A stretch of DNA of 40,480 nucleotides from Gammaproteobacteria bacterium. Its GTDB lineage: Bacteria; Pseudomonadota; Gammaproteobacteria; SURF-13. Position 1 is the first letter of the stretch; each line of letters starts with the position of its first letter. This document shows, piece after piece, positions 21,414 to 31,388 of the stretch. The translations under genes were made by a program, and so were the position numbers. The notes under the pieces were generated by a model. The model did no database searches. It had not been told where the DNA came from and saw nothing but the letters and a program-made list of their open reading frames with translations. The stretch spans positions 1-40,480 of the forward strand of contig QZKM01000026.1 of assembly GCA_003599485.1 (NCBI GenBank). The letters are read 5' to 3'.

Positions 21414-21450
21414 CTTTGGTGGGACCTTACTGATGCAGCAGGAGTTTCTT

Positions 21451-21569
21451 GCGGTGCAGGGATGCACCGCTATTTTCAATGGCTGGAAGCCATTGAAAAT
21501 GAAGGCGAGTGAAAATCGCATTTTTCACTCGCCGTGCCCTGAGCAGCCCATGATGGGCTGATTCAGGGC
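21451..21569. repeat. Cluster of four tandem perfect hairpins
   Basis: Four back-to-back inverted repeats fill the gap between tRNA-Leu and the nuo terminator. They are: 8 bp GCGGTGCA with a GGGA loop (21451-21470); 13 bp ATTTTCAATGGCT with a GGA loop (21472-21500); 12 bp GGCGAGTGAAAA with a 6-base loop (21504-21533); and a two-part stem, GCCCTGA outside and CAGCCCA inside with a TGA loop (21536-21569). The remaining gene-free stretch 21271-21450 holds the promoter and terminator listed separately. The cluster may be a REP-like structured repeat or part of a structured RNA; no coding potential is visible. Confidence 0.75.
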
Positions 21570-21575
21570 TTCATA

Positions 21576-21660
21576 TGGTGCCGATGGCCGGACTCGAACC
21601 GGCACAGCTTTCGCCACAGCCACCTCAAGACTGCGTGTCTACCAATTCCACCACATCGGC
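21576..21660 (-). tRNA. leuU: tRNA-Leu (GAG)
   Basis: 85 bases including CCA. The acceptor GCCGATG pairs with CATCGGC, the T-arm contains GGTTCGAGTCC, and the long variable arm marks class II. The anticodon loop CTTGAGG gives GAG. It lies directly downstream of secG, as leuU does in E. coli. Confidence 0.97.
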
Positions 21661-22094: not shown

Positions 22095-22847
22095 TTACTC
22101 CGCGGCCTGGCAAATGGCCAGAAACTGCCCGGCGTGCAGCGAAGCGCCGCCAATCAGGCCGCCGTCTATATCCGGCATGGCGAACAGCTCAGCGGCGTTG
22201 TCGGCCTTGACGCTGCCGCCATATAAAATCCGGATTTCACCGGCTATTGTAGCATTATGGGCGGCGATGCGTCTTCTCAAGTACGCATGCACCTCCTGCG
22301 CCTGGGCCGGACTCGCCGTCCTGCCGGTGCCGATCGCCCACACCGGCTCGTAGGCGACCACACCCTGCGCCAGGCCCTCCACGCCCACCGTCTTTAATAC
22401 CGCATCCAGTTGCCGCGCGGCCACCGCTTCGGTGATATTCTGTTCGCGCTCCTGCAAGGTCTCGCCCAGACACAGGATGGGCTTTAGCCCCGCGCCCAGG
22501 GCCGCCGCCACCTTGAGCGCCACCAGTTCATCGGTTTCCCCATACAGGCTGCGCCGCTCGGAGTGCCCTACGATCACATAGCTGCATCCCACATCACGCA
22601 GCATGGTTCCGGCCACCTCGCCGGTATAGGCCCCTTCGGTTTTATCGCACAGATTTTGCGCGCCGAGCAAAATAGCCGAGCCCGCAAGCTGCGCGCCGAC
22701 CTCGCTTAAGTATACAAACGGCGGACACAACACCGTTTCGACGTGCTTCAGGCGCGCCGCGCCCTGCTTGACAGCCTCCACCAGGGCCTGAGCATTCTTG
22801 CGGGAACCGTTCATCTTCCAGTTCCCGGCCACCAATTTACGGCGCAT
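22095..22847 (-). CDS. tpiA: Triosephosphate isomerase
   Basis: Interconverts dihydroxyacetone phosphate and glyceraldehyde-3-phosphate. The 250 residues show all catalytic elements: the substrate-binding lysine in AGNWKMNG, the electrophile histidine in YVIVGHSERR, the base glutamate in VAYEPVWAIGTGRTA and the phosphate loop ILYGGSVKADN. It is normally directly downstream of glmM; here the RHS island separates it from the intact glmM, and only a glmM 3' remnant lies upstream (stop codon 91 bases away). Confidence 0.97.
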   Translation of the reverse strand: MRRKLVAGNWKMNGSRKNAQALVEAVKQGAARLKHVETVLCPPFVYLSEVGAQLAGSAILLGAQNLCDKTEGAYTGEVAGTMLRDVGCSYVIVGHSERRSLYGETDELVALKVAAALGAGLKPILCLGETLQEREQNITEAVAARQLDAVLKTVGVEGLAQGVVAYEPVWAIGTGRTASPAQAQEVHAYLRRRIAAHNATIAGEIRILYGGSVKADNAAELFAMPDIDGGLIGGASLHAGQFLAICQAAE

Positions 22848-22913
22848 GTGCGGAGTCTCCCCTTATTAATGGCCCACAATCCAAGCCGCGAAGCTTACCT
22901 AATTCGAAACACG

Positions 22914-22931
22914 CGGGCAACACGCTGCCCG
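22914..22931. terminator. Possible hairpin between the glmM remnant and tpiA
   Basis: CGGGCA and TGCCCG pair into a 6-bp stem with a 6-base loop, 8 bases beyond the remnant's stop codon on the minus strand. The tail on the minus strand is not T-rich, so termination there is doubtful. Confidence 0.25.
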
Positions 22932-22938
22932 TTTAAAC

Positions 22939-23063
22939 TCACTGCGCCGCTCGTACCACTGCGGCCAGACGTTCGGCGAGCGATTTCACCAGACCCGCGT
23001 CCTCCCCTTCCACCATCACGCGCAGCAACGGCTCGGTGCCGGAGGGGCGCAGCAGATGCGGCC
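22939..23063 (-). pseudogene. glmM: glmM 3'-end remnant (displaced)
   Basis: The minus strand encodes [17 protein letters not shown] followed by [21 protein letters not shown] and a stop. This matches the C-terminal phosphate-binding loop and last helix of phosphoglucosamine mutase, including the RPSGTEP signature. The match at DNA level runs up to about 23063, with one base missing at about 23055 relative to the intact gene. There is no start or upstream part. It lies exactly where the native glmM 3' end would be relative to tpiA. Its sequence past the signature differs clearly from the intact glmM (30045-31388) and is more GC-rich (hand count about 65% against 54% over the terminal 80 bases), so it is probably the original chromosomal end. 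Confidence 0.85.
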
Positions 23064-23065
23064 TG

Positions 23066-23089
23066 AATAAAGGGGACGCTACCTTTATT
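23066..23089. repeat. REP-like hairpin next to the RAYT remnant
   Basis: AATAAAGG (23066-23073) and CCTTTATT (23082-23089) form a perfect 8-bp stem with the loop GGACGCTA. It abuts the glmM remnant on one side and the 3' end of the truncated RAYT gene on the other, the usual position of a REP element cognate to a RAYT transposase. Confidence 0.65.
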
Positions 23090-23096
23090 TTTCAAT

Positions 23097-23339
23097 CTAT
23101 TCATCAGAATCCTTCCTCGGCCGTCCACGTGGACGGTACTGCAATGCTCTTCCCGTCATCCTCTCAAGCTTGTGGATGAACTTGCCTGAACCACAGGGCA
23201 GACCTTTTTCTATGTTGCGCCGCAGTACTCCAAGCTTCTCCGCCTCATTGCCCTCGGCCAGCCAGGCCGACCAGTCGCCGATGCCTTCAAACTGCCTGCA
23301 CCAATACGGCTTTTTCGTCAGTAATGCGTCTTGTCTCAA
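23097..23339 (-). pseudogene. C-terminal fragment of a REP-associated transposase (RAYT, Y1 family)
   Basis: About 80 residues including IGDWSAWLAEGNEAEKLGVL, RRNIEKGLPCGSGKFIHKLE and RALQYRPRGRPRKDSDE. These match the C-terminal tail I associate with REP-associated Y1 transposases, which mobilise or spread REP hairpins. The catalytic HUH and tyrosine region, normally upstream, is missing because the stretch opens directly after the membrane-protein gene. It is therefore a non-functional remnant. It starts with TTG if translated at all, and overlaps the end of the preceding gene by 4 bases. Confidence 0.75.
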
Positions 23340-23755
23340 TCCGCAGTGTCCGCCCGCGCTTGTTTATGTTCTTTAGCTTTGAGCAGCTTTCCGACTGCCA
23401 GATACCCAACGACGGCTGCTGCCACCGGCGAGAGGATCATCAACCAACCTAAGATGCCGGATTCCACTGCAATGATTGACAGCGTTTGAGCCGTCGTGAG
23501 GTTACCAGCGGACCCGATGAGGTACAGAACGCCGATCGGGAATATCAGAATCACGACTACGAACGTCACGACGACATCCAGCAATCGGACCCTACCAGCA
23601 AGCACACCTCCCAGTACCGCAAGAACGGCGAAGATCGGAAGCGACCAAGCCGGAATCTCTGGAATAAGATCGGCTGCTACCAACGCAGCGGTTGCGATGA
23701 TAAACCCGAAGTAGATAGCGGGCATGACAACGATGCCGAGCGATCGCTTGTTCAT
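23336..23755 (-). CDS. Four-helix membrane protein, candidate immunity protein
   Basis: 139 residues with four predicted membrane segments: about 7-31 (PAIYFGFIIATAALVAADLI), 38-55, 59-82 (LLDVVVTFVVVILIFPIGVL) and 91-121. It ends in a short basic cytoplasmic-type tail. I do not recognise the family. Its ATG is 2 bases past the stop of the orphan RHS C-terminal module, the position an immunity gene normally occupies. A membrane-embedded immunity protein would fit a toxin acting at the inner membrane; this is inference from position only. Its own ribosome-binding site is weak (GGGGAC about 10 bases upstream), suggesting translational coupling to the RHS tip. Confidence 0.6.
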   Translation of the reverse strand: MNKRSLGIVVMPAIYFGFIIATAALVAADLIPEIPAWSLPIFAVLAVLGGVLAGRVRLLDVVVTFVVVILIFPIGVLYLIGSAGNLTTAQTLSIIAVESGILGWLMILSPVAAAVVGYLAVGKLLKAKEHKQARADTAD

Positions 23756-23757
23756 GG

Positions 23758-24748
23758 TCAGATGTCCCCGTCACCAGGCCCTTTCGGAAGCTTCGGCTTT
23801 CGGACCTTCCCGAGGCATTCGATGAACTTGTTACGGCATTCATTCTGTTTCTGTTCATCGGTACCTGCTGCTCCATAGCAAGCCTGTTGTTCGAACGTGC
23901 AGCACACCGTCATGGATACCTTGCACGCAAGGTCAATGCAGACCTCGCAGATCTTTCCGCCGATCGGGTTCTCAGGGCATATCCGGTATCGGTTGTAATC
24001 GCCAGAGCTGTCAGTACCGTCCCCGGCTTGCAATCCAAACGGATCGATGAAACGCAAAGGATTATTGTTGGCGTAGACAGACGTAGGTATTGAGTCCTCC
24101 ATCCAACCCAATCGGATCCCTGGAAAGATACCGCTCCGACTGCGGATCATAATACCGATTCCAGTTGTAGTGTAGTCCGGTCTCCTGGTCATAGTACTGG
24201 CCGGGGTATCTCAGGTTGTTGGTGAGGGTGGCTGCATCCAGGGTGGCTTCGCCGTAGGCGTCATAGGAGGCCGACCAGACCTGGGCGCCGCTCATGGTGG
24301 TGAGTTTCTGCGGGGCGCCGAGGCGGTCGTTCTGATAGAAGTAGTAGCTGTGGTTGGCCTGGAGGTAGAGATATAAGGGGTCGGTGCCCCACACGCTGTC
24401 GGGGGCGTAGCCGTAGGTCTGGATGAGGGCGCCGCTTTCATTGTATTCGGCAATCAGGCCTTCGTCGCTGTAGTGGTACCAGGTTTTGGTTCCGCCGGTG
24501 TCTTTCCACAGGCGCCGGTTGAAGGGGTCGTAGCCGTAGGCGGCGATCGGGGTGTTGCCTTGCTCGACTTTGCTCAGGCGGTTTTGGGGGTCCCAGGTGT
24601 AGTGGACGCCACTGGGGTCGGTGAGGCTCTTTTTGCGGCCGCGGGCAAAGTGGCTAGGGCGCGTGGCAGAGTGTAAAGGCCACGCAGCACGGACAGCGCC
24701 CTTCGCACCGCGCAGCGTCGTTCCTGTCTTTATTTGACTCATGCTCAT
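23758..24748 (-). pseudogene. Orphan RHS tip with cysteine-rich C-terminal domain, frameshifted
   Basis: From about 24631 the minus strand encodes RHS repeats (SGVHYTWDPQNRLSKVEQGN, then the hallmark RYLSRDPIGLDGGLNTYV). The reading frame then breaks at a 4-base tandem duplication (agacagac, 24075-24082). With one copy removed it reads GLNTYVYANNNPLRF then DPFGL, the standard end of an RHS core. After DPFGL about 85 residues follow with nine cysteines (such as CEVCIDLACKV and VCCTFEQQAC), with no family I recognise. There is no N-terminal shell and no plausible start, so it resembles the displaced tip left by RHS C-terminal exchange. The first about 40 codons upstream are not RHS-like. A four-helix membrane protein follows 2 bases later. 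Confidence 0.75.
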
Positions 24749-24769
24749 GGGTCGTTTCTGGTTCCATTC

Positions 24770-24800
24770 GGCGGGTTACGGCGCGAGCGCCTAACCCGCC
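24770..24800. repeat. Imperfect palindrome after the lipoprotein gene
   Basis: GGCGGGTTACGGCGC (24770-24784) faces GCGCCTAACCCGCC (24787-24800) across two bases; the arms differ by one inserted base. Sequences of this GGCGGGTTA...TAACCCGCC type are common dispersed palindromes in proteobacteria. It lies 8 bases past the lipoprotein stop and could act as an mRNA end. Confidence 0.55.
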
Positions 24801-24808
24801 CTACCGGG

Positions 24809-25225
24809 CTACTTCATCAGCTCGAATTCAACAGAGCCTCCAGAACCTGGTCCGAATCCCATCACCAAATATTGCTTCCCGATTGATAACGGCTTAGCAC
24901 TCGCTGCTTCAGAGAAGCCAGAGGGAACTACACCATACTGAATTTGCTCAACCTCCAAATATTTTCCCGGCCTCAGTTCAAACGCCCACATCGGATTCTT
25001 ATAGTCCCATTCGCCTGCTTTTTTCTCCACGACCATAAAGCTATTAAGCTCAACTCGACTGGTATTTCCCTTCGGGGGAGATAGCAAAGACTTGGAGAAT
25101 TTAAAGGATGGCCGCTCAGAATTTAAATTTTCCGGGATGATTTCAAACTTGTTTGAGCATCCCCAAAGAAGTGCCAAGTCAAGCACAAGAAATATAGCAA
25201 TGTAATGTTTTTTCATGTCTGACAT
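24809..25225 (-). CDS. Putative lipoprotein, candidate RHS immunity protein
   Basis: 138 residues with an N-terminal signal and lipobox (KKHYIAIFLVLDLALLWGC, lipid cysteine about residue 23), so it should be exported and lipid-anchored. The mature part is about 115 residues, has no recognised domain, and includes WDYKNPMWAFELRPGKYLEV and a glycine-rich FGPGSGGSVEFEL end, suggestive of a small beta-rich domain. Its ATG is 3 bases past the RHS stop codon (an ATG at codon 4, 25216, is possible). Position suggests immunity against the RHS metallopeptidase tip, and the periplasmic location would match a toxin acting outside the cytoplasm. It is AT-rich relative to flanking core genes, fitting horizontal transfer. 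Confidence 0.65.
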   Translation of the reverse strand: MSDMKKHYIAIFLVLDLALLWGCSNKFEIIPENLNSERPSFKFSKSLLSPPKGNTSRVELNSFMVVEKKAGEWDYKNPMWAFELRPGKYLEVEQIQYGVVPSGFSEAASAKPLSIGKQYLVMGFGPGSGGSVEFELMK

Positions 25226-25228
25226 AAC

Positions 25229-28200
25229 CTATTTGTTTTGGCACTCGCATGCGCCTTGTTTTCCTAAGCCACGCGACTTTATAAGATTCTCAAAGTCGGA
25301 TGTGTTTTGCGAATTCCTGATCAACGCACGGTAATAATCTGCAAGTATCTCAGCCTGTTGCTCATAACGATAGTCACCAAAATCCTTGCTGGGGTCCAAA
25401 TCATATTGGTAAGTGTCACTCCTTGTCCCTTCAGCAGCAGCCTTTACCCAGCTATAGCTTGGATCATTTTGACCCTGATAGACATGTCCCACTTCATGAA
25501 CTAGCCACGATTGCTCTGCCAGATTTCCCGTCGAGAAATCTGATTTATAACCAGAAGATGGAAAATAAATGTTGTTGCCTAATGTGACCGCATTGTTTGT
25601 TGCAAGCGGTGGCCAAGTGCGAGGATCAAAACCTGGCCCGTCATGAATATCGATTTTCGGGTAATCAACATTGCAGTTGAAAATCTGACGAAGCATGTCA
25701 ATTTCGCCAGCTGTTAATGGACGAAGTCCGAAAGGATCGTAGTATCGAAGCGGATTTGCAAGAGCATAGATATAGGTATTCAGTCCCCCCTCCAACCCAA
25801 TCGGATCCCTAGAAAGATACCGCCCCGTCCCCGGATCATAATACCGATTCCAGTTGTAATGCAGTCCTGTCTCGCTGTCGAAGTATTGGCCGGGATACCG
25901 CAGATTCACGGTTGTAAGCCGCCCGTCTTGATCGGGATCCTCGTTGGGCACGGTATACCCGAAGGCCTCCCCTTCCCAGGACCACACTTTGTGGCCGGCG
26001 GCGTCGGTGGCAAGCCGCGGGGCGCCGAGATGATCGGTGTGGAGATAAACGAATACTTCTTCGCCCGTACCGGCACCCGGGCGTTTGGTCTGCGCTGGCA
26101 TCGGGGGGCGCTTGTCAAGAACGGTGCTGCGACCGGTGGCACAGGCTTGGTTTCCGGGGTTGCCGTGGTCACAGGGCAAGGGACGGGGGTCGCGGGTTGT
26201 GGTCCACTGCCCGAGCACTTTGTCCTCAGCCCAGAGGTATGTGCGATGGGTCGCGCCGCTCGCGTCGGTTTCCCGCAGCAGGTGGCCTTCGATGTCGTAG
26301 TGAGATAGCGTGATGCCCTGCGCCGTTTGTTTGCGGGTGCGCTGGCCAAGATGGTTGTAGGTGTAGGTGGCCACCCTGGAGCCGTTGTGGTAGATCTCCT
26401 TGAGCCGTCCGGCCTGGTTGTAGCGGTATTCCCGACCCGTCGCATCAGTCAGGGTGTTGCCGGCGGCATCGAGGGTGATGGCGCCCTCAGGGGAGGTGCT
26501 GAGGCGGTTGGTGGCGCTTAGGTAGCTGTAGCTGCCGCGGGCGTCGCTTAGGCGGTTGCCGTTGGCGTCGTAGCCGTAGGTGTCTATGGCGGTCTCTCGG
26601 TTCATTTGAGTCAGCCGGTCAAGCCGATCATAGCGGTAGTTTGCGCCCTCCGCCAGGCTTTGTTTTTGGGTGAAGTTGCCGTTGGGGTCATACGTATAGA
26701 GCCGGGTGTCGGCCGTGCCGAGGGACTGGTAGGTGAGGCGCCCTTGTAGATCGTATTGGCGCGCTTCGGCCAGACCGTTGCCATAGCCCTGCGCAATCAG
26801 AAGTCCATCAGCACGGTAGCTACGGTTGGCGGCGATGATGGTCGAAACGCCGTTCACCGTCGCTGTGACGGCGCCGATGCGTCCGAGGGCATCACGGGTG
26901 TATTGTACAAGGCGGCCGTCGGGATAGGTAATCCCGATGAGCCGATCGGCGGCGTCGTAGCCATAGCGTGTCACGTAGGTCACGCTGAGCTCAGCCTTCT
27001 GGTGGGTTAATACGTTGCCGAAGGCATCAAAGGCATAAGCGCTGATACCGCTTTCGTCCTGGACCTGGCACAGGTGGCCGATCCCAAAGGTACAGGCGGT
27101 CGTACTGTCCACAGGCGCCGCGTCGTAGGTAAACAGGACATCCTCCGCGGTGCCGGGGTAATCGAGCATGGTGGGACGGTTCAGAGGGTCGTAGATATAA
27201 GTGACGGTGATGCCTCGGGCGTCGGTCATGGTCTTGACATTACCGGCCGCATCGTGGCTATAAGCCGTCGTACCCCGATCGGGCGAGTGTTCTTGCAACA
27301 GGTTGCCGAGGTCGTCGTAGATATACTCGGTCGTCGCGTTGTTGGGGGCTTGCATCTGTTTCAGCCGATCGGCCACGTCGTAGTGATAGCGAGTGCGACC
27401 GCTTAGATTGTCGAGGGTCTCGATCAGGCGGTTTAAGGGGTCATAAGTGTGGGTGGTCGAGATACCGCTCGCGGCCGCCACTTGATTCGGGTCAGTCGTT
27501 TTGAGGAGGTTGCCGACGGCGTCCCACACTTGCCGGGTGAGGGAACCGCCGCTGTTGATCTCGTTCACACGGTTGCGGGCATCATAGGTGAACTCAATAG
27601 AGCGCGCCAGAGCGCCTTGGGGGTCGTAGGTCTTTTCACCGACGCGGTTGCCTTTGAGATCGTAGGTATAGGTGATCTTGTTGCCCAGACTGTCTGTGAT
27701 AGTCCTGAGGTAATGGGCAGCGTCGTAGGTGTAGGTAAGCGCAAAGCCATCGGGCATGGTGACCGAGGTTACTTGGCCTGCGGCGTCGTAAGTATATTGG
27801 GTGAGACGGGGCGTCCCGCCCGGCGGGGTGACGGTGACCGTGAGCATGCGCCCGCGTGCATCATATGTGTAGCTGGTCTTGATGCCATTGGGGTCGGTCA
27901 TCTGCAGCAATCGGCCGGCGGCATCGTAGGCATCATAGGTGGTGGTGTGGCCCAAAGCGTTGGTCACATTCTTTAATTGGCCGCAGGCACCGCCGGTGGT
28001 GCAGCCGTAGTAGGTCAGGGTGGTGAGGTCGTTTACGTCGGTGCGCGGTCCGTCGAGTTTGGTCACCTGGCCGGATACGTTGTAGCCGAGTTTGACCGTG
28101 CGCGAGACCGGTGTGCCGGAGGGCATGTAGCCCGATTGGGTGATTTCGATCGGGTTGCGTTGGGCATCGTAGGTAATATGCGTTTGCTTCGTGCCCGCTG

Positions 28201-29983
28201 CCCACACGCTGGGGGTTTCAATGAGCGTGGGGAGGTCCAGCTCGGCGCTGAGATATTGGTAGGCGGTAATGCGTGCGGCCGCGCCGGACACCGGGCTGCT
28301 ACAAGCGCCGGTCAGTCCCTCGGTCATTGAAACGCGCTGGTTGGCGGTGTTGTAGGCGTACTTCGTCACCCTGCTCTCATCGTCTTGTTTACAGGTGAGG
28401 TTATTGTTGGCGTCGAAGGTTTGAGTATGGGTTCTGCCGTCACTCAGGTTTTTCCTGGCTGTGAGGTTCTTCATCCCCAAGGTCACGGCAAAGGTCATGA
28501 CCTCTTTGTTGCCAATCGCATCGGTGATAGTGGTTTGCGTATCCGTGTCATACTGCAGGGTATATTTCTCCTGCGGGCCGCCGTTGTCAGTGACGGCGTG
28601 CTGGCTGGTGACCGCCCGGCCTTGGCTGTCGTAGCTCCAGGTGGCCAAACGCGCACCGTTTTCATCTGTGATCCCGGTCAGGTGACGCGGGTAAGCCGTA
28701 TTTTCGTAGTGATAGGTTCTGAACTTACCGTCCGGATAGGTCACGCGGATGAGGTTGTTGCTGGCATCATACGCGTAGCTGTAAATCTTCCCTGCGGGAT
28801 CTGTGAAGGTGCTTAAATGGCCACTCGCATCGTAGCCAAAGACCAGGGCATGACCAAAGGGACCAGTGAGGGTGGCGAGCTTGCCTTGGGTGTTGTAACC
28901 ATAGACGTAAGTCAATCCAGCACGATTCGTGCTCGATAGGAGTTTACCCATACTGTCGTAACGCTCAGTAGCACCATCCTGGTGAGTAAGGGTGTACCCA
29001 GTGGCGCCTTGGGCAAGAATCAATTCCGAATCAGCCTCGCCTTGCCAGGCTCCTGAGGCATTTTTAGTAAAGTGCTCGCCACGCCCGTCGCCACGCCACA
29101 CGGTGAGGATGGTGCTGTTGATCTCCAAATAGGGGGTGGCATTCGCGCTCCAGCCATAGCCGAGACCCAGGTCTTTGTTTGCGCCGCTGTTGTAAGAGCG
29201 GGTGAAGCTTATTGTGCCATCGGGACTGCGGTAATCTATTTCAGATTGATACTTGTTGCCGGTGGCGGGGTTGCAGGGGTTGCCGATGCATTGATCGGGC
29301 TCGCCGAGGTTTTTAGGCGGGGTTTCGCACAAACCTGGCAGGGCGTTGCGTGTCTGGCCAACGGGACAGGGATCGAGTGTAACGGTGATGGTCGCGGTTA
29401 TGGGGTTGGTGCAGATGGTATTTGGACCTACTGCTTCATGTACTAAAGGGTCGCCTAGGGATATGCTCTTGGGAAAATTAGCTATGGCATAATTGGCTGG
29501 AGTGTAGCCAGTCGGACAAGATAGCCAATGAAACGGATAGCCATGAGGCCCACGATGATCTGGGTTTGTCGTAATTAAATCAAAACATCCCCCCTCTTCC
29601 CCATATCCACGGTCTGCATTCTGGATATAAGTGAGAGGGTTATGCCAGCCGATAAAATCCCTACGGGCGTCACATACTTCGTGGCCAGAACCATAATCAC
29701 CTGGAACATTAGCCCAATCAGACCATGTGGAGGGATTAGGTGGTATGGGTGGTACAGTATAGCTTCTTATAATGATTGTGGCGGTTTGGCTGATGATCTT
29801 ATCGAATTGTAAAAGAGCAGTACCAGCACTCACTGCCCTCATGGCGGCTTCGGCCTCTGCCAAGGTGGGATAAATCTGGCCGCCGGTATTGCTAGGCTGA
29901 AAGGTGTCCGAGTATGCAGCATTGCCTATGGCAGTCAGGCACAGCACGCACAATAACCACGCCCCGTTCGTGATGCGCTTCAA
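25229..29983 (-). CDS. RHS-repeat polymorphic toxin with signal peptide and HExxH C-terminal domain
   Basis: 1584 residues. The start is TTG, supported by GGGAGG 4 bases upstream. A signal peptide (NGAWLLCVLCLTAIGNAAYS) is followed by about 200 residues of cysteine-containing N-terminal region. A DUF6531-like segment follows (GNPCNPATGNKYQSEIDY, about 230), then more than 20 YD/RHS repeats such as TYDAAGQVTSVTMPDG and YRYDRLDRLTQM. The core ends RYLSRDPIGLEGGLNTYIYA and DPFGL (1416-1420). The last 164 residues are the variable tip. They contain H1496-E-V-G-H1500 and later YEQQAEILADYY, where a glutamate could be the third zinc ligand, so a zinc metallopeptidase toxin is likely. There is no PAAR, VgrG or Eag partner nearby, so the export signal points to Sec rather than a type VI route. 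A lipoprotein gene follows. Confidence 0.88.
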   Translation of the reverse strand: MKRITNGAWLLCVLCLTAIGNAAYSDTFQPSNTGGQIYPTLAEAEAAMRAVSAGTALLQFDKIISQTATIIIRSYTVPPIPPNPSTWSDWANVPGDYGSGHEVCDARRDFIGWHNPLTYIQNADRGYGEEGGCFDLITTNPDHRGPHGYPFHWLSCPTGYTPANYAIANFPKSISLGDPLVHEAVGPNTICTNPITATITVTLDPCPVGQTRNALPGLCETPPKNLGEPDQCIGNPCNPATGNKYQSEIDYRSPDGTISFTRSYNSGANKDLGLGYGWSANATPYLEINSTILTVWRGDGRGEHFTKNASGAWQGEADSELILAQGATGYTLTHQDGATERYDSMGKLLSSTNRAGLTYVYGYNTQGKLATLTGPFGHALVFGYDASGHLSTFTDPAGKIYSYAYDASNNLIRVTYPDGKFRTYHYENTAYPRHLTGITDENGARLATWSYDSQGRAVTSQHAVTDNGGPQEKYTLQYDTDTQTTITDAIGNKEVMTFAVTLGMKNLTARKNLSDGRTHTQTFDANNNLTCKQDDESRVTKYAYNTANQRVSMTEGLTGACSSPVSGAAARITAYQYLSAELDLPTLIETPSVWAAGTKQTHITYDAQRNPIEITQSGYMPSGTPVSRTVKLGYNVSGQVTKLDGPRTDVNDLTTLTYYGCTTGGACGQLKNVTNALGHTTTYDAYDAAGRLLQMTDPNGIKTSYTYDARGRMLTVTVTPPGGTPRLTQYTYDAAGQVTSVTMPDGFALTYTYDAAHYLRTITDSLGNKITYTYDLKGNRVGEKTYDPQGALARSIEFTYDARNRVNEINSGGSLTRQVWDAVGNLLKTTDPNQVAAASGISTTHTYDPLNRLIETLDNLSGRTRYHYDVADRLKQMQAPNNATTEYIYDDLGNLLQEHSPDRGTTAYSHDAAGNVKTMTDARGITVTYIYDPLNRPTMLDYPGTAEDVLFTYDAAPVDSTTACTFGIGHLCQVQDESGISAYAFDAFGNVLTHQKAELSVTYVTRYGYDAADRLIGITYPDGRLVQYTRDALGRIGAVTATVNGVSTIIAANRSYRADGLLIAQGYGNGLAEARQYDLQGRLTYQSLGTADTRLYTYDPNGNFTQKQSLAEGANYRYDRLDRLTQMNRETAIDTYGYDANGNRLSDARGSYSYLSATNRLSTSPEGAITLDAAGNTLTDATGREYRYNQAGRLKEIYHNGSRVATYTYNHLGQRTRKQTAQGITLSHYDIEGHLLRETDASGATHRTYLWAEDKVLGQWTTTRDPRPLPCDHGNPGNQACATGRSTVLDKRPPMPAQTKRPGAGTGEEVFVYLHTDHLGAPRLATDAAGHKVWSWEGEAFGYTVPNEDPDQDGRLTTVNLRYPGQYFDSETGLHYNWNRYYDPGTGRYLSRDPIGLEGGLNTYIYALANPLRYYDPFGLRPLTAGEIDMLRQIFNCNVDYPKIDIHDGPGFDPRTWPPLATNNAVTLGNNIYFPSSGYKSDFSTGNLAEQSWLVHEVGHVYQGQNDPSYSWVKAAAEGTRSDTYQYDLDPSKDFGDYRYEQQAEILADYYRALIRNSQNTSDFENLIKSRGLGKQGACECQNK

Positions 29984-30044
29984 GCGTCCTCCCTTGTCAA
30001 AGTCCCGCCCTTTAAGCGTACGGTATTCTGCGGGAAGGGGGCTG

Positions 30045-31388
30045 TCAAGAGTACACTTCAGAGATAGCTTGACTGATCACAGAAGCCAGATGACCGGCAA
30101 GTGTCTCCACTTGCCGTTGATCGCCCCCCTCCACCATCACACGCACCAGCGGCTCGGTGCCGGAGGGGCGCAGCAGGATGCGGCCCTGGCCGTTGAGTTG
30201 GACTTGCGCGTGCTGCACGGCGTCTTGCACGGCCTTTGATTTTTCAATATCGAAACCGCGCGTGAGTTTCACGTTGATCAAGCATTGCGGATATTTGGTT
30301 ATGCCTTGTTTTGATTCGTACAGCGTAACGCCTGTTTGCCGCAACGCCGCCAGCACTTGCAGCGCGGAGATAATGCCGTCGCCTGTGGTGGTGCGGTCGA
30401 GGCAGATGATGTGGCCGGAGGATTCGCCACCCAGCAGCCAGCCTTTTTGATGCAGCCGTTCCAGCACGTAACGGTCGCCCACGGCGGCGCGATCAAATTC
30501 CACGCCACGCTGTTTCAGCGCCGTTTCCAGGCCGAAATTGCTCATCAAGGTGCCCACCACCCCGCCGCCCAGGGTTTTTTCCTGAAGGCGAGAGAGCGCG
30601 ATGATGAACAGCAACTCATCGCCGTCCACCAATTCACCCTTGTGATCCACCATGATGACGCGGTCACCGTCGCCATCGAGGGCGATACCGAGGTCTGCGC
30701 CGTGTTTCAGCACCGCGCTTTGCAGGTTTTGCGGATGGATGGAACCGCAGTTGGCGTTGATGTTGAGGCCGTCGGGTTCCGCGCCCAGTTTAATCACCTC
30801 GGCGCCGAGTTCGCGCAGCACCTTGGGAGCGACCCGGTAGGCCGCGCCGTGCGCGCAATCCACCACCAGCTTCATGCGTCCGAAATCCATGCCCGGCGGG
30901 ATGCTGCTTTTACAGAATTCGATGTAACGCCCCGCCGCATCGCTCACGCGCTCGGCCTTGCCGAGTTGAGCCGAATCCACGCAGGACAATGGCCGTTCCA
31001 GTTCACGTTCGATGGCGTGTTCAATATCGTCCGGCAGTTTCGCGCCTTGCGCGGAGAAGAATTTGACGCCGTTGTCGTAATAAGGATTATGCGAGGCGCT
31101 GATGACGATGCCGGCCTGGGCGTGCAGGGTGCGCGTGAGGTAGGCGATGGCGGGCGTGGGCAGCGGCCCCAGCAGGCCGATATTGACTCCCGCGGCGGAG
31201 AGACCGGCTTCCAACGCGGACTCGAACATATAGCCGGAGATGCGCGTGTCCTTGCCGATCAGCACCTTGCCTCCTTGTCCCAGCACGCGCCCCGCCGCCC
31301 AGCCCAGCTTGAGCATGAACTCGGCGGTGATGGGCGCTTCGCCCACCTTGCCGCGTATGCCGTCGGTGCCGAAGTATTTTTTTATCAT
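30045..31388 (-). CDS. glmM: Phosphoglucosamine mutase
   Basis: Converts glucosamine-6-phosphate to glucosamine-1-phosphate for peptidoglycan and LPS precursor synthesis. The 447 residues show [12 protein letters not shown] at the start, the phosphoserine loop [12 protein letters not shown] (serine about 99), the metal loop [13 protein letters not shown], the sugar-binding [10 protein letters not shown] and the phosphate-binding R407-P-S-G-T-E-P. Everything needed for activity is present. The odd point is the tail. After the RPSGTEP motif the sequence [20 protein letters not shown] and on differs from the remnant beside tpiA and is less GC-rich, so the last 30 or so codons probably arrived with the RHS island while keeping the gene intact. 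folP lies 43 bases upstream. Confidence 0.95.

What the first reader, a model, noticed from the sequence alone, without database searches (positions are those of the whole stretch)
22939..30180. RHS island entered glmM and apparently supplied a replacement 3' end
Two divergent glmM 3' ends flank the island. The one beside tpiA (22939-23063) has no gene body. The one at 30045-30180 completes the intact gene. Both share a near-identical stretch over the RPSGTEP codons (ggctcggtgccggaggggcg and neighbours), then diverge. The terminal 80 bases of the intact gene are lower in GC (hand count about 54%) than the remnant (about 65%). The simplest reading is insertion or recombination at the conserved RPSGTEP codons by an element that carried its own glmM 3' end, keeping the essential gene alive. 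This is the strategy integrative elements use at tRNA genes, but here at an essential sugar-phosphate mutase and with an RHS cargo.
Basis: partly seen in the sequence, partly recalled or inferred. Interest (0 to 1): 0.75.

Follow-up and report, generated by a model that had tools for sequence, protein, structure and literature searches.

The report
Toxin island replaced essential gene end
In an uncultured bacterium a cluster of toxin-like genes sits right behind the essential cell-wall gene glmM, and the sequence suggests that the incoming DNA brought its own copy of that gene's last part and pushed the old one aside, so that the cell could accept the insertion without losing the gene.

Summary
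An orphan glmM 3' end (22939-23063, minus strand) lies 91 bp from tpiA, near the spacing of island-free relatives; a 7.0 kb Rhs island separates it from intact glmM (30045-31388). The two copies share 35 of 36 bp ending at the RPSGTEP codons, which none of the 5,671 pairs among 107 glmM genes reaches; then identity falls to 51 of 87. Beyond this break the intact gene has foreign-looking codon use (GC3 0.53, against 0.755 in its own body and 0.72 in the remnant), with the largest end-of-gene fall among those 107 genes. The tRNA-style integrase comparison is not shown: no integrase was found. A RAYT fragment, 96% identical to one in a sister genus, abuts the remnant. A family member with 11.3 kb behind glmM shows the same anomalous gene end; another with 2.2 kb does not.

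The parts
30045..31388 (-). intact glmM (447 aa)
   Evidence: Four Pfam PGM/PMM domains; the only full-length glmM found in the genome
30045..30149 (-). present 3' end beyond the break, inferred replacement tail (34 codons plus stop)
   Evidence: GC3 18/34, P 0.0035 against own body; strongest tail-body GC3 fall of 107 genes
30150..30185 (-). shared 36-bp block, copy 1 (to the end of the RPSGTEP codons), inferred site of recombination
   Evidence: 27 bp exact, 35/36 to copy 2
25229..29983 (-). Rhs protein, 1584 aa: DUF6531, YD/RHS repeats, Rhs core, C-terminal stretch with an HExxH motif; probable signal peptide (both by eye)
   Evidence: Pfam and NCBIfam; translation; the eCIS_core match is below its cut-off
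24809..25225 (-). 138-aa putative lipoprotein next to the Rhs C-terminus, possible immunity protein
   Evidence: position only; no family match
23758..24748 (-). orphan Rhs 3' fragment with its own C-terminal tip, split by a frame change
   Evidence: Rhs core matches continuing from one frame (24062-24748, above cut-off) to another (23758-24192, below cut-off)
23336..23755 (-). 139-aa membrane-like protein, possible immunity protein of the orphan tip
   Evidence: position and hydrophobicity by eye; no family at cut-off
23062..23360 (-). 3' fragment of a RAYT (IS200-like) transposase gene with its REP end (23066-23089); the BLAST match overlaps the remnant by two bases
   Evidence: 96% over 299 bp to a complete copy in G002 that carries Y1_Tnp; REP once in own genome, 11 places in G002
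22939..23063 (-). orphan glmM 3' end, inferred displaced native end
23029..23063 (-). shared block, copy 2
22848..22938 (-). spacer and tpiA promoter region
   Evidence: GGTAAGCTT-type element seen upstream of many tpiA genes of the class
22095..22847 (-). tpiA, probably native
   Evidence: with the family in a 55-row tree, support 79, not starred; best of 369 class genomes is G004; other trees leave it unresolved

Best explanation
A piece of DNA carrying the 3' end of glmM from a relative in the same family, followed by an Rhs toxin module, recombined with the resident glmM at the conserved RPSGTEP codons. The resident body now continues into the incoming 3' end and stays a complete gene, with the Rhs genes behind it on the same strand. 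The old 3' end was left next to tpiA as a non-coding fragment. A RAYT element later landed at or beside that fragment and, with a deletion, trimmed it. Shown: two copies, the break, the composition, the positions. Inferred: which copy came in, the donor, the order of events. The likely process is RecA-type recombination over a short identical stretch, either a single crossover with a circle or homologous at one end and illegitimate at the other.
For: Identity break 35/36 then 51/87, and none of 5,671 pairs among 107 genes with such a left match. Present tail GC3 18/34 (P 0.0035 against own body, 0.0002 against neighbouring genes), remnant 21/29 (P 0.42 and 0.17). Last 29 codons 0.48, reached by 1 of 1544 overlapping windows of neighbouring genes and 0 of 20 other gene ends. 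Strongest tail-body fall of 107 glmM genes; best change point at codon 422, just past the break, permutation p 0.012. Remnant near native spacing to tpiA. G003, with 11.3 kb between glmM and tpiA, is third strongest (z -3.19); z at or below -3 in 2 of 5 loci with a gap over 700 bp, 1 of 72 with a shorter gap, 0 of 30 with no tpiA in the locus. RAYT 96% identical to that of G002, so DNA does pass between these genera.
Against: By amino acids the present tail fits the family and the remnant does not. The whole glmM and its last 66 columns group with the sister genus, as a native gene should, with modest support (41-87). The remnant is nearer in residues to many other genomes' tails than to its own gene's (own rank 44 of 109). 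Three of the 5 loci with long gaps show no strong fall (G002 -0.93, L022 -1.66, L028 +1.86), and L084 has one without an island. That tpiA is native is not firm. Tail and block are short, the block's ends were chosen after seeing them, the GC clue was part of the finding, and the 107 genes were picked for likeness to this glmM. No island-free genome of the same genus was available: G001 lacks both genes.
Confidence: 0.6

Rival explanations
1. The present tail is native and the remnant is foreign: DNA from another lineage came in on the tpiA side, anchored in tpiA or its leader, and brought the island and a stray glmM end.
For: Tail placement (98% of weight in the family for the present tail, 0.3% for the remnant); agreement of glmM columns 380-446 with the species tree; tpiA's own affinity is not firm.
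Against: The remnant's left block is the window's own sequence; the present tail has deviant GC3 and the remnant does not. The donor would already have had a truncated glmM there.
Confidence: 0.2
2. The island was an integrase-driven element with an attachment core in the RPSGTEP codons, and its integrase has since been lost.
For: The layout (short direct repeat in a gene's 3' part, replacement end, displaced end) resembles that of islands at the 3' end of guaA (PMC9376610, passages).
Against: No integrase among the 6 island proteins scanned; by eye the three islands of this family have unrelated cargo and different junctions.
Confidence: 0.12
3. The 3' end was duplicated in place and the copy then decayed.
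For: A 24-bp duplicated glmM end flanks the island of G002.
Against: The remnant would be closest to its own gene, but beyond the break it is not; it keeps an open frame after the broken start.
Confidence: 0.04
4. A chimeric join in an assembly.
For: The genome is in 50 contigs; no reads were seen.
Against: By eye the RAYT end and glmM share only a few bases at their junction, and both sides carry the gene order of this family.
Confidence: 0.04

Closest known systems
Displacement of T6SS effector-immunity modules in Vibrio cholerae (PMC5361080, passages seen)
   Same: Incoming DNA anchors in a conserved upstream stretch, brings a new part and cargo, and leaves the old part downstream as an orphan; no integrase is invoked.
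   Different: There the anchor is the toxin locus itself; here it is an essential housekeeping gene and the orphan is its own 3' end.
Islands at the 3' end of guaA such as GIsul2 (PMC9376610, passages seen)
   Same: Insertion in the 3' part of a metabolic housekeeping gene.
   Different: GIsul2 has an integrase and an 8-bp core; here no integrase was found and the repeat is 27-36 bp.
Rhs loci with orphan C-terminal tips (PMC3967940, listing and start of abstract)
   Same: Rhs gene with a variable tip, neighbouring small gene, and a displaced older tip behind it (the general picture is recalled).
   Different: Ordinary in itself; only its position behind a patched glmM is unusual.
RAYT/REP elements (PMC2817692, passages seen)
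   Same: IS200-like transposase gene with a REP at its end; the G002 copy has REPs on both sides.
   Different: Only a 3' fragment is left in the window.

Membership tests
Integrase-driven island at a gene's 3' end | site-specific integrase in the island | tested here: not met
   none among 6 island proteins scanned
Integrase-driven island at a gene's 3' end | identical direct repeats (att cores) at both ends | tested here: inconclusive
   one repeat of 27 bp exact, 35/36 overall; a homologous crossover would leave the same
Integrase-driven island at a gene's 3' end | the element supplies a replacement 3' end | tested here: inconclusive
   composition supports it, tail placement does not
3'-end displacement by homologous or homology-facilitated illegitimate recombination | homology at one junction | tested here: met
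   break inside glmM after a 36-bp block
3'-end displacement by homologous or homology-facilitated illegitimate recombination | old 3' end kept downstream | tested here: inconclusive
   an orphan end is there; that it is the older one is inferred (against)
3'-end displacement by homologous or homology-facilitated illegitimate recombination | RecA dependence | not testable with these tools
   needs an experiment
Rhs toxin locus | YD/RHS repeats and Rhs-associated core before a variable tip | tested here: met
Rhs toxin locus | toxic tip and cognate immunity protein | not tested
   HExxH motif seen by eye; neighbours have no family match
RAYT/REP element | Y1 transposase domain | tested here: met
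   in the complete G002 copy; the window holds only the 3' part
RAYT/REP element | inverted REPs on both sides | tested here: inconclusive
   met in G002; one REP only in the window

The most novel reading that the evidence does not exclude
In this family the RPSGTEP codons of glmM act as an integrase-free docking site: unrelated modules (Rhs here, an 11 kb cluster in G003) arrive linked to a glmM 3' end from a relative, so that an essential gene selects for clean acquisition of the cargo behind it.
Probability: 0.25. Interest if true: 0.6.

Novelty: new variant of a known kind. Interest (0 to 1): 0.45.

Why it matters
It would show that an essential housekeeping gene, not only tRNA genes or toxin loci, can be the anchor for recombination that brings in cargo, with the gene patched in the same step. 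It leaves a readable record (an orphan gene end) and gives a testable rule for finding such events elsewhere: an orphan 3' fragment beside the old neighbour plus deviant codon use in the living gene's end.

Tried and rejected
It has too little power. In the calibration 10% of native tails lay 6.4 log units or more below their best place and 25% lay 4.6 or more. The remnant lies 6.9 below on the window's branch (8.4% of native tails do as badly) and 4.4 to 8.5 below on the family's branches.

Search for a donor of the remnant: a DNA search of 369 class genomes with remnant and spacer gave, outside the window, matches mainly to the conserved codons; no close donor. A plasmid search with 9.5 kb gave one match of about 42 bases.

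The tpiA leader as a family marker: rejected, since its promoter element is common in the class.

tpiA as a test of which side is native: with the family in the 55-row tree (support 79) and not rejected with the sister genus (p 0.68), but in an 11-row tree it did not join the sister genus, and in a 104-row tree its nearest rows were from other families. Unresolved.

Terminator or promoter at the glmM-Rhs junction: none listed there, and counts for the region no higher than in shuffles; folds no better than shuffles.

In-place duplication and decay: made unlikely. A scan of 117 loci for a repeated glmM end gave nothing longer than 18 bp except the 24-bp case of G002, present twice as L033 and L121.

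Mosaic within the glmM body: columns 240-340 fit the sister genus worse and 385-446 better than the family stem, and columns 1-380 alone do not group with it (3.9 log units, p 0.43). As the sister genus is the expected neighbour by NuoA-G and FtsH/FolP, I did not use this as evidence for transfer.

Rows dropped before counts: repeats of the same genome, entries under 400 residues or with stops; two loci lacked the tail motif. The window's gap was entered by hand from its coordinates. Gene limits are open reading frames chosen by eye.
Full report
Setting. The window is a contig stretch of a 1.69 Mb, 50-contig genome. The order on the minus strand is ftsH, folP, glmM, island, tpiA, secG, tRNA-Leu, nuo genes (names of secG, folP, ftsH and nuo by eye and from relatives). 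In the same family G004 and G005 have tpiA 81 and 77 bp behind the glmM stop, G002 has 2.2 kb and G003 11.3 kb between them. Of 107 glmM loci 77 have both genes in reach, 72 of them with gaps up to 700 bp; the three gaps of 2 kb or more all belong to this family, but for 30 loci no tpiA lay in the stretch held. The cargo differs: Rhs here, a GGDEF-type gene in G002 (by eye), and toxin-antitoxin-like, regulator-like, acetyltransferase-like and repeat proteins in G003 (by eye). G001, the only other genome of the genus found, lacks glmM and tpiA.

The two ends. One search finds the intact gene and a separate fragment matching residues 405-441. In the alignment the fragment, which starts beside the REP end of a RAYT gene, has eight identical bases, one missing base, 27 identical bases, and then diverges. 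To ask whether the identical stretch is only codon conservation I compared the 36 bp up to the end of the RPSGTEP codons, and the 87 bp after them, in 107 glmM genes. The fragment matches its own genome in 35/36 and no other gene in more than 32/36; no pair among the 107 genes reaches 35/36. Beyond, it matches its own gene in only 51/87, less than it matches G002 (56/87). So left of the break both copies look like the window's own sequence, and right of it they have different histories. The stretch was chosen after seeing the alignment and I did not correct for that; the 27-bp exact run alone is not special, since two other genes share 26 bp.

Which end came in. Composition: beyond the break the present tail has GC3 18/34 and the remnant 21/29. 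The chance of 18 or fewer is 0.0035 at the gene's own level and 0.0002 at the level of neighbouring genes; the remnant is unremarkable (0.42 and 0.17). Of 1544 overlapping 29-codon windows of neighbouring genes one is as low as the last 29 codons of glmM, and none of 20 other gene ends is. Among 107 glmM genes the window has the strongest fall from body to tail; the best change point is codon 422, a few codons past the break (permutation p 0.012). G003 is third strongest, with its change point 32 codons from the end; L084, with no island, is second; G002, L022 and L028, with longer gaps, show no strong fall; over the 5 long-gap and 72 short-gap loci the rank test gives p 0.043. Position: the remnant stands near the distance from tpiA expected of the native end. 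These favour the present tail as the newcomer.

Evidence the other way. On a tree of glmM bodies the present tail places inside the family with 98% of the weight, the remnant with 0.3%. The species neighbours by NuoA-G are G002, G004 and G005 (support 89/92, 85), and the last 66 columns of the present gene agree with that (support 87). But in the calibration with all 107 tails many native tails misplace as badly, G003 and G004 tails placed alone lost 2.8 log units, and holding the remnant together with the window and its sister genus is not rejected (p 0.82). By DNA over the last 63 bases the remnant is 59% identical to G002 and G005 and 49% to G004, the present tail 52, 56 and 62%. A donor within the family explains a tail that looks like family but not like this genome's codon use: 18/34 is ordinary at the level of the G004 tail (P 0.31). 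My weighting of these lines is a judgement, hence 0.6.

The island. Rhs of 1584 aa with repeats, core and a C-terminal stretch containing HExxH, a small gene behind it, then an orphan Rhs end 59% identical over its core and split by a frame change, a membrane-like gene, and the RAYT fragment. So the locus appears to hold two displaced 3' ends, one of Rhs and one of glmM. Of 369 class genomes 40, the window's own included, have an Rhs match at 1e-60; G002 and G004 have none at that level. The RAYT fragment is 96% identical over 299 bp to a complete copy in G002 although the glmM proteins of the two genomes are 71-74% identical, so it moved recently.

Known systems. Displacement with homology at one end and illegitimate joining at the other is proposed for T6SS modules (PMC5361080, passages) and measured in E. 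coli (PMC3240628, abstract). Islands that use the 3' end of guaA are known (PMC9376610, passages); that paper also mentions a truncated glmM in the CR2-sul2 unit, in a different setting. tpiA and rrmA/guaA are listed among insertion sites in Photorhabdus and Xenorhabdus (PMC3091717, passages). The searches listed no paper that, by title and the start of its abstract, describes an island with a replacement glmM end; the library is partial, and I saw passages of five papers and the outline with abstract of a sixth.

Verdict. The replacement reading is the best one but not proven, and the process looks more like ordinary recombination than a tRNA-style integration.

Noticed in passing
window 21437-21580: A composite of hairpins (by eye) of about 130 bp between nuoA and a tRNA-Leu gene, dispersed in the family with about 20 places in G001; no Rfam match except the tRNA itself.
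   Followed up: partly
L189 7595-7682 (G002): An 88-bp copy (95%) of the start of tpiA and its leader lies behind what reads like ffh and directly before a pair of REPs: a second gene fragment beside a REP in this family.
   Followed up: partly
L121/L033 near 4600 and 6705 (G002): The GGDEF-type insertion is flanked by a 24-bp repeat (23/24) spanning the glmM stop codon, with a REP-like word close to the copy beside tpiA.
   Followed up: partly
L033 3232-4614 (G002): glmM of G002 carries an in-frame insertion of roughly 18 codons near its start compared with the window's gene.
   Followed up: no
L120 3660-14900 (G003): 11.3 kb of other cargo behind glmM, whose last codons also have unusually low GC3 and a C-terminal extension; no repeated glmM end was found there.
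   Followed up: partly
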